Assembly (NCBI RefSeq): GCF_003144115.1
Contig: NW_020312005.1
Span: 32,362-96,361, forward strand
Direction of reading: 5' to 3'
DNA length: 64,000 nucleotides
Source of the DNA: Tilletiopsis washingtonensis
Taxonomy: Eukaryota > Basidiomycota > Exobasidiomycetes > Entylomatales
Shown here piece by piece: positions 27,121-33,215 of this stretch. The notes under the pieces were generated by a model. The model was not told the DNA's origin and did not search any database. It saw only the letters and a program-made list of their open reading frames with translations. The position numbers were made by a program, and so were the translations under genes. Each line of letters opens with the position of its first letter. The stretch's first letter is position 1.

Positions 27121-27444
27121 AACAGAAACGTGGAGAGGGTTAGGGTTTTGCACGTGCTCTATGCCTGCCGGAAGCCTGCTGTCCTCGCCACTCAGCGATA
27201 AGACTTTGAACAGATGCACTTCAGACGTGCGTGTAGCAGCAAGCGAGAGGAACAGAGAGAGACAGTGGGGCGCCGGCCAGGCAGAGGTGCACTGGCCGCA
27301 GCGGTGAATCTGGGAGAGAGGCAAGCAGGTCTGGGGGTGAGGGTAAGTGAGGGCAGCGCGAGGAAGAGAACGCCGCCGGTGAGGCGGGGTATGGGAAAGG
27401 TGTGGGTAATGTGCGATGGGATGGATGGGCGCTTTGTCGACGGC
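27121..27444. other. Short interval beyond the LINE fragment
   Basis: Contains GGGTTAGGGTTTT (27136-27148), telomere-like but a single short copy, then the 3' flank of the minus-strand secreted protein gene. No gene seen. Confidence 0.35.
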
Positions 27445-30400
27445 TCAGCAGCGCGCTTCGAGGCTGTTGCCGTCGCGGCGCACCGGGCAGTTCTTGACAG
27501 GCACGAACTTGACCGAGTCGATGAGCATCGTGGCGCTGGAGCCCGCGGTGCTGCAAGTGAAGAAGAAGTTAATCTTGCTGATCTTGCTCACGTCGCTGAT
27601 CGTCCTGGTGTAGGTGCTCCACGCCTGATTCATGTTGAAGTTCATGGTTGTCGGGCTGGACACTGCGTTTGAGTTCCACGACATTGCAAACGAACAAGCA
27701 GCGGCGCCGCCGGTGGCGGTCCCGCCGTTGTAGCTGACAATCTTGTAGGACAGCTTCACGTCGTACTTGCTGTAGCCGTCCGAGCCGTCGAGCGGGTAGC
27801 GCGCCGGCAGCACAATCTCCTGCGACATCACCGCCCCGCTGTCGGAGGAGGAAGCGGACAGCTGGGCATAGTGCAGGCCGTCGTTGGCAGTCTTGTCGGC
27901 GTTGCTCAGAGTCGTGCCGCTGGCCACCCATGGCGTGAGATCAGCGGCCTCAAATCGGCCATTACGAGCCGCGCTGAACAGCTCCTTGTGCGGCTTGAAC
28001 TGCACCTGGTCGACGAAGACAGTTGCTGTGGTAGCGTAGTCGCATTCCAGACCGATGGTGATGACCTTGATCAACCCGCCGTCCTCGCTCTCGATGGGGC
28101 CACTGAAGTCAATCCAGCCGTTGAACGCATTTCCAAAGGCGTATTCCATGATCGGGGTCCTTGTCCAGCCACCGTCTTGGGAGAAGTAGAGGTGGCACTT
28201 GCCGTTGGAGTTGCCGGTGTTTGCAAAGTCCCTTGCTCGCCACTTAAGCGAGACATCGTAGCCATAGTAGCCATCATACAGCGCCCGCGCAGGCATCACG
28301 AGTTGCTGAGAGGCTTTGCCGCCTGACTGGAGCCACAGGTACCTCTGGCCATATTGCGGCTCCTCGATGGCGACAGAGGCTTGGCCATCGAAGCTCCAGT
28401 AGGGACTGCCGCTCTCAAAGTTGCCGTTGCGCGCAACATCCGTTGGCTCGATCTTGGGCGGCGTGTACATCTTCGGCGCAAACTTCACCTGGTCGATGTT
28501 CACCGTTGCCGAGGTGCCGGACGCGCAAACTACGTCAATCGTGATAAGCTTGACAAACGCGTCGTCGTTTGTGACTTCCTTGCTGAGGGTAAGCCATGTG
28601 CTGGCCGTGTTGAAGTCGTAGATCGTGTTGTCGATCCGCGCGCCACCGTCGTTGGACATGCCAATCGAGCAGGCCCCGCCGCCGCTGATGCTTGTCACGC
28701 GCCACTGGAAGGAAACCATGTACTGGTTGTATCCGTCGTAAAGTGACCTGCGGGGCATCTCGATGCGCTGGCTAATTGACTCGCCGCCCTGGAGACTGGC
28801 GTATTGCTCGCCATAGTTTGAGTTGACCGTGCCGATGTCGCTCTGGCCTGTGAAGGTCCACTGCTCCTTGCCGCTCTCAAACCCGCCGTTCCGGGCGACG
28901 TCGGTCGGCTCGGACTTTGGCACCGGCGTGTACGCCTGCGGCACAAACTGGAAGCAAGAGGTCCAGCGTCAGGTGCGAAGTGTCGGAGAGAGGGCAGACA
29001 ACTCACCTTGACCTGGTCAATGTACACCTTGGTGGTCGGGCCTGGGTCGCACGCCGTGCCGATGATGATGAACTTGACAAAGTCGTCGTCGTTTGTGAAG
29101 GTGGCTTGGTAGTCGGTCCACACTCCCGCGCTCGCAAATCTGCGCTTATCGACCTCGGCGACGGGGAAGGTGTCGAAGTTGGCTACGAGCTGGCATCCGC
29201 CGCTCTGGCCGTCGAAGCTGGCGACCTTGTACTTGAACTTGACGACATATTGATTGTAGCCCTTGGGTGCGCCGTCAGGCAGCTGGATGGTCTGACCAAT
29301 TGCACCCCTGGATTCGCCCTTGAGGAGCGCATACTGGGCGTCGTAGAACGAGTCCGCGGTCCCGATAGTCGCCTCGTTGCCAAACTTCCACGGGTCTTGT
29401 CCCTGCTCAAACCCGCCGTTGATGCACACATCATCTGCCATTGGCGGCTTGTAGTCGTTGGTGAGGATTTCGACGGCGTCTATGTGGACCTCAGCGGAGG
29501 CGCCGGCGTACTGGCTGCAGTCGGTGAGAATCTTGATCTTCTTGATGAAGTGCTTGGGGTCGGTGGCACGGATGCCGAAGGTCCGCCACTCCGACACTTG
29601 TCCAACAATGCTCTGCAGAGCCGTGCCCTTCTCGTCGTTGTACTGCACAGTCAGGGAGCACGCTGCTGTGCCCGGCGCACTGCCCTGATTGTACGCGGCC
29701 ACGCGGAATTTGAACTTGACGTCGAACGAGTTGTAGCCAGCCACCGTTGCGCCGGCCGGGAGCTCGATGTCCTGCTCAATGGAGCCGCCTTGGCCAAAGA
29801 GCTTGGCAAACTTCTCACCCTTGAATGCGCCTGGATTGGCGTCGATCACGATGTCGGCATTGGCGTCAAACGTCCACTTCTCCTTGTTGTCTTCAAAGGA
29901 GGGGTTCTGCGCCACGCCATAGTCGGTGGTGTCCGGACCCTCCGGCAAGCCCGCCGGCACGGCGTTGATATCATCCACATGTATGGTGCCGGTGCCGCCG
30001 TCAGGGCAGTCCATGGCAATGTAGAGGAATTGAATGACGTTGTACTGGCTGACGGTCACTTTGAACTCCTTCCATTCGCTGCTGGCGCTCGGCAGGCGCA
30101 CGCTTGCCGCGTCCGCAGCCTTCTGCGCGTCGACGACGGCGGCCAGGCGGCAGCCCTTTGCGCCGGCATTGGCAATCTCGGCGATGCGATACCGGAGCGT
30201 CACGGCGTAGGCTGCGACGTGGAGGGAGTCAGCACCACCGTTGCTCCGCAAGGTAAGTGCCGGACGGGGGAGGCAGGAAAGCAGGACATGATCAACTCAC
30301 CGTTGGGCCTGTCGGTTCCGCGCGTCTGCAGGAGACCTCTTCTCGACGGCGGCGGGCCGCCCATATCCGTGTAGAGCGCCGGGCCCCCGTTCTGGTTTGT

Positions 30401-31316
30401 CGTGAGAATCGCGTAGTGCTCGCCATCCCATGCAGTGACGTCCTTCTCGCTGCGCTTAGTTTTGCCAAGGATGCTCCATGGCGCCAGGCCGTCGGGGCCT
30501 GCATTGGCGTCTTCAAAATGTCCGTTCACGATTCTGTTGTCTGTGAATGATGGGGTCAGGGGGGGATGGAAGGCGGAGGAGGGGCCAACACGTACTCGGC
30601 TCGTCGGTCGGCGGGTTAGTCTCCGTGGGCGGCGGGTCCGTGGGTGTGGTGGGGTCCGTGGGCGTGGTGGGGTCCGTGGGCGTGGTAGGGTCGGTGGGCG
30701 TGGTGGGGTCCTTTGGCGTTGTCGGCGGCGTTGTAGGGTTCGGATCCGGCGTTGTCGTCGGCGCTGCGCACTTGTGGTCCGTGCAGATGCCGGACAGGCA
30801 CTATGGCGCAAAGGGTCAGCCCCGGTTGGCATCAAAAGAAGTACGGAGGGGCACGCACGCCAGCTGGCTTGTAGCAATCGGCACCGACGGGCTGCGGCAC
30901 GGCGCACTTAGACTTGCCGCAGTACGTTGATGCGCACGACTTGCTTGTCTCGCACCGCTCGCCGAGCGTCAGCACGGCGCCAGCAACACAGCGCTTCTCT
31001 GAGCACTTGTTGGAGATGCACTGTGGGGCAGCACGCGCAGAGCGGCGGCGTTGGGGGTTCGCAAGCAATTGAGGAAAGGAATGCCAGGTTCACGTACGCC
31101 AATTGACTTGTAACACTTTAAACCCAGCTTCTTGCGCACGTCGCACTTGCCGCGACGGCAGTAGAGGTCCTTGGTCCCGCACTGGCTTGACTTGGTGCAG
31201 GGCCAGCCAAGGTGACGCTCGTTGCCGACAACGGCGCTGGCGTCAGCGGGGTCCGCAGGCGCGGGGAGCGCGGCAACCAGCGGCAGCGCCGCCAGGAGGA
31301 GGGGGAGGAAGCGCAT
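27445..31316 (-). CDS. Secreted modular protein: Cys-rich head, TP-repeat linker, six CenC-like modules
   Basis: Predicted extracellular glycan-binding protein. Exons 31316-31098, 31020-30859, 30800-30596, 30540-30301, 30211-29007 and 28947-27445 give 1177 aa. MRFLPLLLAALPLVAALP is a signal peptide. Residues 38-145 contain repeated short Cys patterns (CTKSSQC, YCRRGKC, KCSEKRC, YCGKSKC, ICTDHKC). A linker of tandem TTPTDP units (about 150-190) follows. Six galactose-binding-like modules of 140-170 aa then start near residues 196, 374, 536, 693, 846 and 1002. Each opens with N-G-x-F-E plus a Trp (for example ARNGGFESGKEQWTF) and has Q-x-I-x-L/M-P and Y-x-V-x-F/L-K/R-x-R/K. Each closes with V-x-I/V-D-x-V/I and has a conserved Cys pair. 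No catalytic domain, GPI tail or transmembrane helix is evident. CBM_4_9/CenC is my closest family. Confidence 0.85.
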
Positions 31317-31371
31317 GGAGGAGACGAGGAACTTGCTGAGGATCAAGGAGCAAGCGCATCTCATGGAGCGC

Positions 31372-31378
31372 CTTTATA
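31372..31378 (-). promoter_or_regulatory. TATA box of the modular secreted protein gene
   Basis: GTATAAAGGCGC on the minus strand; the TATAAAG lies 56 bp before the ATG at 31316, the same spacing as for the GH43 gene. Confidence 0.55.
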
Positions 31379-33215
31379 CGCAATGTGCTGCAGCGGCTCA
31401 TGCCTCAGAAGCCGGATCACGAGAGTCCACGCTGTCTGCCATGAGAGCGACCTGCAGACATGAGCACGCCAGAGCTTGCGCCCAGCCTCCATGCCTGCTG
31501 CTTCTCCTCCAAGGGGAAGCGCTGTCTGTCCAATGGATGTCTACCCACGTCCAGCCGCAACACTGTGCAGCTGCGCACCGCTCCCGCGGGGCAGTCTTGC
31601 GTCTCAGGAGCAGGCGGGGAGCGTACGGCCCTGGAGTGCGGTCCCGCTGCCCTGGGCGAGCTGCAGCTCTCGCAGCGGGACGGTCGGAGGCGTCGCCGCG
31701 TGCGGATCGTGGATCTGAGGAATGGCAAGGACCGTCCAGATGCAGCGCAACATGTGTCAGGTGTGGGACCTCGTCTGCTGCAAGGCGTCTGCAGTGCGCC
31801 AGCCATGTCAGCGTGGGAGTGGCGGTCTGCTGCCCAGTTGTCCGGCAGCGAGCCGGGGTCCGCAGCCGCAGAACAGCCCGAGGTGAAGCAAGCAGCGAGG
31901 GAACGGCGCTGGCGTCTGCCATCGGACCGCACGCAGCACGCAGCACCTCATGTGTGGCACTGGTCCTGCAGCCAGCTGTTCACGCGCCGCTCGCTGTGGC
32001 TGGCTCAGGTCCCAGTGTCAGGGTCCCGCGCCTGCGAGGGCGGACCCAAAGGGCCGGATGCTGGATGCATGCAGTGTGGCGCTGCGCCGGCTGCAGTCTG
32101 GCGGCGTCGCAGCTACCGCCCTGAGCGGCTGGTGCCCGCTGCATGCCGCTCATGCAGGCCCGCTTCCACCGCCAGAAGCCCTCCTGCGCTGTGCGAAGCG
32201 GAGCGCCTCATGGCCGTGCCTCCGCCCTGCGGCTGCGGTGCGTGTGGCACAGCGCGTGCCTTGCACCCACGCGCTGGCGCATGCCCGATGCTGCACGCCG
32301 CGTGCGCCGCTGTGTCGGAGTCTAGTTGCCATCGTCCGCGCCGTGCGCGCGCACAGGCCTGTGCCGACGCCAAGGGGCAACGCCGACCCTCTGCGCCTCT
32401 GCGTGCTGCACGGCGCATCGATCTGCGCTTCCGCGTCCGGCGCAGCGCTGCGGCCCCGCCTGCCGTGCGCCGAAGCTCCAGCGCCCAGGAGACTTACGCG
32501 TTATGTAGGGGAACAGCTGCGCGCTCGGCGTGTGGCGCGAGTCCGAGCATGGACGCACGCGACGCGCTACTCAGGACGAGAGACCCAATAGATGGCGCTT
32601 CAGCGGCTAGCGCAGGCTGAGCGGGCGGGAGGTGTGCCAAGGCTGAGTGCCGGTCTGGCAACCGCTCTGGGCGTTCGCAGCCAGTGACCAACCTTTGATC
32701 GTCGCTGCGGACTCATGAGGTCCCGTGTCGCGTCTCAAGCGCTCCAGCACGTCTGCCGACTGCTTCACACTCGCCACCGATGCGTCGGCCCGCCTGTGTA
32801 CCAAGCGACAGGCTGATACGCACATTCTGCGCGATGAGCTTTCGCCCAGCAGGGTTGACGAGACTGCGAGCGACTGTACGAGCGCACGTGGAGCGCTACA
32901 GCAGACATCACTTCAGCAAGACGCTGCACGGAGCTCACCGGCCGCGTACAGAGCTGCACGAGGCGCCTGGGGCGTAGCGGAGCCGATTCTGCGTGTTCTG
33001 CTGCTCAGGAGGCTCAAAGGCGAGCGCGAGAGGGGCTGGACGCGTTGCCGCGGCGCGCAGCCGGGACTCGGGCAGCGCGCGCGCAACGCCGCGGAGCTGC
33101 CTCCACACGGCGGCACGTGCACCGCCAGCGCGGCAGGGTTCTGGTCTTGGCGCCGCGAGCAGGAGGCTTCCTTCCTGCTCCACCTCCCACCACAACAACC
33201 CTGCGCCAGCACATC
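31379..33215. promoter_or_regulatory. 1.8 kb divergent intergenic region (CenC-module protein / GH15)
   Basis: The region separates two divergent genes for glycan-active proteins. It contains long open frames on both strands (one of 386 codons on the + strand), but these are Cys/Arg/Ala-rich and compositional, with no domain. I see no tRNA or repeat. Its size suggests a complex bidirectional regulatory region, as usual for carbon-regulated secreted enzymes. Confidence 0.45.

What the first reader, a model, noticed from the sequence alone, without database searches (positions are those of the whole stretch)
27445..31316. Secreted 1177-residue protein with six tandem CenC-like modules and a Cys-rich head
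Seen: signal peptide, repeated short Cys motifs, a TTPTDP linker and six modules, each with N-G-x-F-E, a Trp, Q-x-I-x-L/M-P and its own conserved Cys pair. There is no catalytic domain. Known: CenC/CBM_4_9 modules bind glycans. Inference: a multivalent wall- or mucilage-binding protein, perhaps an adhesin or glycan shield. The combination of a toxin-like Cys-rich head with six beta-sandwiches may be lineage-specific.
Basis: partly seen in the sequence, partly recalled or inferred. Interest (0 to 1): 0.75.

Follow-up and report, generated by a model that had tools for sequence, protein, structure and literature searches.

The report
Secreted yeast protein, six glycan-binding-like modules
A plant-associated yeast carries a small family of secreted proteins that join a cysteine-rich head to two or more fast-changing modules that look sugar-binding, probably a many-armed sticky protein for holding on to surfaces or neighbours.

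Summary
Window 31316-27445 (minus strand) is a six-exon gene for a 1177-residue protein: signal peptide, 16-Cys head, Thr/Pro linker, six tandem modules. The genome is Tilletiopsis washingtonensis (Exobasidiomycetes). Paralogs carry last head unit, linker and modules in single open frames, so this is one gene. The one well-modelled module (M3, pLDDT 80) is a galactose-binding-like beta-sandwich of the CBM16/CBM22/CBM4/MAM type. The whole protein passes the Pfam CBM_4_9 cut-off; the three modules scanned alone (M2, M5, M6) do not.

New here: at least six head-plus-module genes, five on one contig. Between paralogs A and B the head is almost frozen (1 nonsynonymous against 19 synonymous changes) while modules change fast (dN/dS about 0.5). 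Head region with its introns, and 3' end with flank, are 92-95% identical; the middle is 53-77%. This looks like mosaic exchange among paralogs. The head, four C-x5-C-x4-6-C-x4-C units, recurs in proteins without these modules.

Best reading: a soluble multivalent lectin-like adhesin with a constant self-side head and diversifying glycan arms. Ligand and anchoring are untested. It is a new variant of a known kind.

The parts
27445..31316 (-). Gene A: CDS from ATG to stop, six exons (31316-31098, 31020-30859, 30800-30596, 30540-30301, 30211-29007, 28947-27445), 1177 aa
   Evidence: paralogs B, C, D
31266..31316 (-). Signal peptide, about residues 1-17 (cleavage site inferred, no predictor run)
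   Evidence: hydropathy maximum at residue 3; same start in B and C
30765..31226 (-). Cys-rich head, residues 31-139: four C-x5-C-x4-6-C-x4-C units, 16 Cys, pI 9.1; crosses introns 1 and 2
   Evidence: omega 0.01 between A and B
30596..30764 (-). Thr/Pro-rich linker, residues 140-195
29925..30540 (-). Module M1, residues 196-371 (split by intron 4; sub-threshold MAM match; dibasic RR in a loop)
29436..29924 (-). Module M2, residues 372-534
   Evidence: alone no Pfam match at E up to 0.1
28909..29435 (-). Module M3, residues 535-690 (split by intron 5); best CBM_4_9 match; its exon-5 part (143 of 156 residues) was modelled
28447..28908 (-). Module M4, residues 691-844
27976..28446 (-). Module M5, residues 845-1001
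   Evidence: alone no CBM_4_9 match at E up to 0.1
27448..27975 (-). Module M6, residues 1002-1177, with C-terminal CPVRRDGNSLEARC
   Evidence: CBM_56 and CBM_4_9 sub-threshold
30541..30595 (-). Intron 3 (55 bp), found only in gene A
   Evidence: B, C, D, E and F read through this site in one frame
30212..30300 (-). Intron 4 (89 bp), found only in gene A; no second copy found in the genome
27189..32270 (-). Stretch whose pieces (27189-29448, 29991-30212, 30636-32270) match the B locus: a segmental duplication with flanks
   Evidence: blastn; identity profile

Best explanation
A secreted, soluble, multivalent lectin-like adhesin. Shown: signal peptide, 16-Cys head, Thr/Pro linker, six non-catalytic modules each with a conserved Cys pair; one module modelled as a galactose-binding-like beta-sandwich; membership in a paralog family of at least six genes with two to six modules; between the close paralogs A and B a nearly frozen head and fast-changing modules; mosaic similarity among A, B and C. 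Inferred: the basic head holds the protein on the fungal side (own wall, mucilage or other head-bearing proteins); the linker is an O-glycosylated spacer; weak glycan-binding arms give avidity for plant-surface, fungal or bacterial glycans; new arm sets arise by module gain or loss and by exchange among paralogs while the head is kept.
For: CBM_4_9 over cut-off. Match of the module profile to the CBM4 of Lam16A (1gui, E 5.6e-4). Predicted M3 fold near CBM16, a porphyran-binding CBM, CBM22, CBM61, MAM and gingipain adhesin domains. No hydrophobic C-terminal tail. Head omega 0.01 between A and B against 0.44 in M6 and 0.51 in M1-M5 pooled, Fisher p = 1.0e-5 and 4.8e-9. Head region and 3' end 92-95% identical, middle 53-77%. 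The head recurs in Cys-rich proteins without modules and, it appears, before a Gly-rich tail. Six head-plus-module genes in one genome. A conserved N-terminal Cys motif, S/T-rich spacer and variable C-terminus, with a CBM_4_9 tribe at dN/dS 0.62, is published for Fusarium (PMC4494044, section 15 read).
Against: No ligand, location or expression evidence. M2, M5 and M6 fail the CBM_4_9 cut-off alone; of the relatives scanned, D (25.0 bits), F (18.1) and E1 (no match) also fail, P0003 passes (27.3). The fold is shared with MAM and reelin domains, which bind proteins (recalled), and Foldseek's first row is a Cry1Ac toxin. The cleft aromatics expected of a type B CBM were not tested. The three-module model is poor (pLDDT 56.7). 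The head is not frozen everywhere: between A and D omega is 0.39. Part of the head/module contrast in total divergence comes from gene conversion, so only dN/dS speaks of selection, and no A-B segment has omega above 1 (M3 bootstrap reaches 1.08).
Confidence: 0.45

Rival explanations
1. Matrix or mucilage cross-linker: head and modules all bind the fungus's own polysaccharides and proteins and knit the extracellular capsule; diversification is relaxed constraint in a structural protein.
For: Basic, Cys-rich head and acidic linker and M1-M5; a related Cys-rich open frame of 2358 aa looks structural; no A-B segment has omega above 1.
Against: Structural self-binding would not obviously need module omega of about 0.5 beside a frozen head in the same gene pair.
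Confidence: 0.25
2. Glycan shield or elicitor-hiding protein, working like LysM-type effectors: modules coat fungal or released plant glycans so that plant receptors do not see them.
For: Secreted, non-catalytic, multivalent, fast-evolving modules; a Fusarium CBM_4_9 tribe with elevated dN/dS is reported (PMC4494044).
Against: Tilletiopsis species are described as saprotrophic yeast-like fungi (PMC6883903, passages); at 1177 residues it is far larger than typical effectors (recalled).
Confidence: 0.13
3. Protein-binding (MAM-like) arms, not lectins: the sandwiches mediate homotypic or partner-protein contacts.
Confidence: 0.12
4. Gene-model error: head and modules belong to separate genes.
For: Five introns were placed by hand and no RNA data are held here.
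Against: B joins the last head unit, linker and M1-M3, and C the last head unit, linker and all four modules, in one frame; D joins head units 3 and 4 with part of unit 2, linker and both modules in one exon; P0001 runs from signal peptide into M6.
Confidence: 0.03

Closest known systems
CBM_4_9 / CenC-type carbohydrate-binding modules (Pfam PF02018; CBM4, CBM16 and CBM22 structures)
   Same: Whole-protein Pfam score over cut-off; same predicted fold for M3; PDB sequence match of the module profile to the CBM4 of Lam16A.
   Different: No attached enzyme; 19 of 20 aligned modules carry a conserved Cys pair; the three modules of A scanned alone fall below the cut-off; ligand unknown.
Fusarium [SG]-P-C-[KR]-P secreted proteins (PMC4494044, section 15 read)
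   Same: Signal peptide, conserved N-terminal Cys motif, S/T-rich spacer, variable C-terminus; one tribe has CBM_4_9 with dN/dS 0.62, another resembles the GLEYA adhesin domain.
   Different: There the N-terminal element is a five-residue motif said to be specific to Fusarium; here it is a 16-Cys domain. No homology is claimed.
EB-module / Dickkopf_N / DUF7107 Cys-rich repeats
   Same: Weak profile matches in the head (DUF7107 E 0.0037) and in related heads (EB 6.5e-4, DUF7107 3.9e-4, Dickkopf_N 7.9e-4).
   Different: All below curated cut-offs; the spacing is a repeated C-x5-C-x4-6-C-x4-C unit; no PDB sequence match at E up to 1.
MAM domains and gingipain cleaved-adhesin domains
   Different: Identity 8-14% in those rows; MAM is below the Pfam cut-off.

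Membership tests
CBM_4_9 (Pfam PF02018) | Profile score over the curated cut-off (whole protein) | tested here: met
   52.4 bits against 25.9; in the genome scan one place over cut-off, 26.6 bits, within M3
CBM_4_9 (Pfam PF02018) | Each single module over cut-off | tested here: not met
   Three of six modules of A scanned alone, 0 of 3 pass: M2 and M5 no CBM_4_9 match, M6 14.0 bits. M1, M3 and M4 were not scanned alone; M3 carries the best stretch
CBM_4_9 (Pfam PF02018) | Galactose-binding-like beta-sandwich fold | tested here: met
CBM_4_9 (Pfam PF02018) | Glycan binding | not testable with these tools
   Needs protein and ligand arrays
MAM (PF00629) | Profile over cut-off | tested here: not met
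   22.7 bits against 26.4 on M1
EB module / Dickkopf_N / DUF7107 (head) | Profile over cut-off | tested here: not met
   DUF7107 18.0 against 24.6 on the head; EB 20.2 against 24.3 and Dickkopf_N 20.1 against 25 on related heads
GPI-anchored fungal adhesin | C-terminal hydrophobic GPI signal | tested here: not met
   By hydropathy only, no GPI predictor: best 19-residue mean among windows starting after residue 1115 is 1.04, against 2.0 at the signal peptide; the protein ends CPVRRDGNSLEARC
LysM-type glycan-shield effectors | LysM domain | tested here: not met
   No LysM among Pfam matches at E up to 1; may still work like one

The most novel reading that the evidence does not exclude
A constant-head, variable-arm diversification system in a basidiomycete yeast: secreted proteins whose head and 3' end are homogenised by gene conversion while tandem glycan-binding-like modules are gained, lost, exchanged and diversified among paralogs clustered on one contig, giving each strain its own repertoire of surface-binding arms, much as antigenic or allorecognition repertoires are built.
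Probability: 0.17. Interest if true: 0.7.

Novelty: new variant of a known kind. Interest (0 to 1): 0.42.

Why it matters
How leaf- and fruit-surface yeasts hold on to plants or to other microbes is poorly explained by known adhesins (recalled, not searched). This family gives concrete candidates: a frozen head attached to fast-changing, binding-type modules, in a saprotroph. If arm sets vary between strains, it would link a mosaic gene family to surface or partner specificity, and it parallels an N-terminal-motif/variable-tail family reported in Fusarium (PMC4494044).

Tried and rejected
Separate genes: rejected, because paralogs B, C and D fuse the parts in one frame.

Introner origin for the A-only intron 4: its 89 bp found only itself in the genome (that search skips very common words). 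Intron 3 (55 bp) was too short for that search and was not tested.

Toxin reading of the head: no toxin family over cut-off in Pfam (LEAP-2, an antimicrobial peptide family, is a sub-threshold match, E 0.07, of one related head); dropped. Endotoxin_C (E 0.067) and the Cry, Vip and iota-toxin rows concern the modules and reflect the shared sandwich fold.

PDB sequence search with the two-row long module profile: 0 hits at E up to 0.1; with the head alone: 0 at E up to 1.

Relatives elsewhere: three protein searches gave P0001 (paralog B, this genome), P0002 (source JGI; 100% identical to D over 64% of the query) and P0003 (source ENA; 63% over 63%). Only the 7994, 7997 and 7999 candidates sharing most words were scored, and the first search was probably flooded by linker words (inference), so absence elsewhere is not shown. 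Gene A itself was not listed.

Three-module model of exon 6: pLDDT 56.7, not used for claims. Alignment A4 looked misregistered and was not used.

Literature (7 searches, open-access library): 'CBM-cenC' + fungal, 1 paper, one passage seen, a table entry; 'CBM_4_9' (matched as cbm49, so it may also catch the family CBM49) with fungal, secreted and cysteine-rich, 2 papers, of which PMC4494044 was read in passages and section 15; 'CBM_4_9' + Basidiomycota, 3 papers, listing only; Dickkopf/fungi, 303 papers, 12 listed; Tilletiopsis washingtonensis, 30 papers, 20 listed, one seen in passages; Tilletiopsis genome secretome, 3 papers, listing; 'DUF7107', none. Nothing seen describes this family.

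Full report
What is there. On the minus strand, ATG 31316 to stop 27445, five short GT-AG introns (55-89 bp) give a 3534-nt CDS and 1177 residues. The protein has a signal peptide, a head with 16 cysteines (residues 31-139, pI 9.1), a Thr/Pro linker (22 Ser/Thr and 21 Pro of 56 residues) and six modules (M1-M5 pI 4.6-5.6, M6 pI 8.3); beyond residue 30 the highest 19-residue hydropathy mean is 1.42, so neither a GPI anchor nor a membrane span is apparent (no dedicated predictor was run). Pfam gives CBM_4_9 at 52.4 bits (cut-off 25.9, two stretches), and sub-threshold MAM, CBM_56 and Endotoxin_C; no catalytic family appears at E up to 1.

Organism. The nearest database protein, P0001, is named as Tilletiopsis washingtonensis and sits on a contig of 804,390 bp. 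That is the length of the contig (C8) that holds the window. The taxonomy is Basidiomycota, Ustilaginomycotina, Exobasidiomycetes, Entylomatales. Tilletiopsis species are described as saprotrophic yeast-like fungi; [quoted passage not shown]

One gene or several. In paralog B (C8 about 112-116 kb) one open frame runs from the last head unit through the linker and M1-M3; in C (about 153.8-156.6 kb) from the last head unit through the linker and all four modules; D (C6 about 290.5-292 kb) has head units 3 and 4 with part of unit 2, linker and both modules in one exon. P0001, which is B by sequence, runs from signal peptide into M6. Introns 3 and 4 of gene A are missing from B, C, D, E and F, that is 5 of 5 other genes, so they were probably gained in A; intron 4 found no second copy in the genome.

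The family. Genome searches with exon 6, the head, an F module and the D modules found six genes with head and modules: A, B, C, E and F on C8, and D on C6, plus a module relic at C8:152473-152646. These searches score only the best candidates, so six is a lower bound. Module numbers: A 6, B 6, C 4 (the last cut by a frameshift, not mended), D 2; E and F carry at least two each by eye. In the 20 modules aligned (A 6, B 6, C 4, D 2, E 1, F 1; the second modules of E and F were left out) all 20 have the first conserved Cys and 19 have the pair; the exception is the cut C4. Each module-bearing gene found, the relic aside, has a head.

The head travels. The same four-Cys unit occurs at C11:696 kb, where a Pro/Glu-rich linker and, across a gap that I did not model, a Gly-rich tail follow; the tail weakly matches the ALK/LTK glycine-rich domain (E 0.0011, below cut-off). 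It occurs at C15:575 kb without modules, and at C2:272-279 kb in an open frame of 2358 residues with 312 Cys and 47 matches to a looser unit pattern (mean 7.2, maximum 12 in 200 shuffles). Profile matches are all below cut-off: DUF7107 and UPF0506 for this head; EB, DUF7107, Dickkopf_N and others for related ones. No PDB sequence matched the head at E up to 1.

Two speeds in one protein. Between A and B (Nei-Gojobori counts), head residues 31-139 show 1 nonsynonymous and 19 synonymous changes (omega 0.01, bootstrap 0-0.05). M6, at a somewhat lower dS (0.19 against 0.31), shows 32.5 and 20.5 (omega 0.44, bootstrap 0.24-0.79). M1-M5 singly give omega 0.33, 0.59, 0.66, 0.42 and 0.61, together 0.51. 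Fisher p is 1.0e-5 for head against M6 and 4.8e-9 for head against M1-M5. Against this: between A and the distant D the head omega is 0.39, so the freeze is a feature of the close group; no A-B segment exceeds 1, though the M3 bootstrap interval reaches 1.08. The A-D value for M1 (1.13) rests on divergent sequences and is not evidence of positive selection.

Mosaic history. In 200-bp steps A and B are 92-94% identical at 31200-30801 (head, with introns 1 and 2) and 92-95% at 27800-27201 (M6 and the 3' flank), but 53-77% from 30600 to 28001; the step 31400-31201, with the start codon and some 5' flank, is 81%, and the steps from 32200 to 31401 are 72-86%. Synonymous divergence runs 0.16 (signal peptide), 0.31 (head), 0.96 (linker), 1.13, 1.07, 0.59, 0.96, 0.51 (M1-M5) and 0.19 (M6). 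For B and C the break lies elsewhere: head, linker and M1 are 99-100% identical in protein and M2 62%. Different breakpoints in different pairs, together with shared flanks (pieces within window 27189-32270 against the B locus), point to segmental duplication followed by gene conversion or ectopic exchange. The B locus also carries a second piece of the 3' flank about 1.3 kb upstream of its start, and a module relic lies upstream of C, as expected of a decayed tandem array.

How it probably works. I favour a secreted multivalent lectin-like adhesin: a conserved basic head on the self side, a glycosylated spacer, and two to six weak glycan-binding arms whose avidity and specificity change with module number and sequence (confidence 0.45). 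The anatomy, family and evolutionary pattern are shown; anchoring, ligand and adhesion are inferred. A self-directed matrix cross-linker, a glycan shield and MAM-like protein contacts remain possible.

Comparison with what is known. The modules are CBM_4_9-type at the level of the whole protein and of the predicted fold, but the three modules of A that I scanned alone fail the cut-off. The nearest published parallel that I found is the Fusarium [SG]-P-C-[KR]-P family: signal peptide, fixed N-terminal Cys motif, S/T-rich spacer and variable C-termini, including a CBM_4_9 tribe with dN/dS 0.62 (PMC4494044, section 15 read). The design is similar; no homology of the N-terminal parts is claimed. 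I therefore call this a new variant of a known kind. Whether it is confined to this lineage is open, because the protein searches scored only about 8,000 candidates each.

Noticed in passing
G000:C2:272-279 kb (L043:2220-9290 +): An open frame of 2358 residues with 312 Cys and 47 four-Cys units by a loose pattern (shuffles: mean 7.2), related to the head; an exon with a signal peptide appears to precede it. Possibly a giant secreted Cys-rich repeat protein.
   Followed up: partly
G000:C11:696 kb (L041:1592-3150 +): The same head and a Pro/Glu linker, apparently joined (junction not modelled) to a Gly-rich tail with a sub-threshold match to the ALK/LTK glycine-rich domain.
   Followed up: partly
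window 30595-30541 and 30300-30212: Two introns present in gene A but absent from the other five head-plus-module genes: likely intron gains.
   Followed up: partly
window about 26.9-27.2 kb, + strand: RNase H-like fragment (PF00075, E 5e-5, just below cut-off), probably a retroelement remnant, close to the end of the duplicated segment.
   Followed up: partly
window about 25.7-26.0 kb, + strand: Ras-family small GTPase exon (PF00071, E 4.7e-18) beyond the 3' end of gene A.
   Followed up: partly
G000:C8:152473-152646 and end of gene C (L013): A module relic upstream of gene C, and a frameshift near the end of C: signs of decay in the array. Not mended.
   Followed up: partly
L012:909 onwards and L012:6228-6357: A piece of the 3' flank lies on both sides of gene B in the same orientation, suggesting a former tandem array.
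   Followed up: no
Module M1 of A, B, C and E (A residues 262-263; C-terminus 1167-1168): Dibasic RR in an M1 loop of four genes (not in D) and again near the C-terminus of A and B (RRDGNSLEAR): possible Kex2-type processing sites.
   Followed up: no
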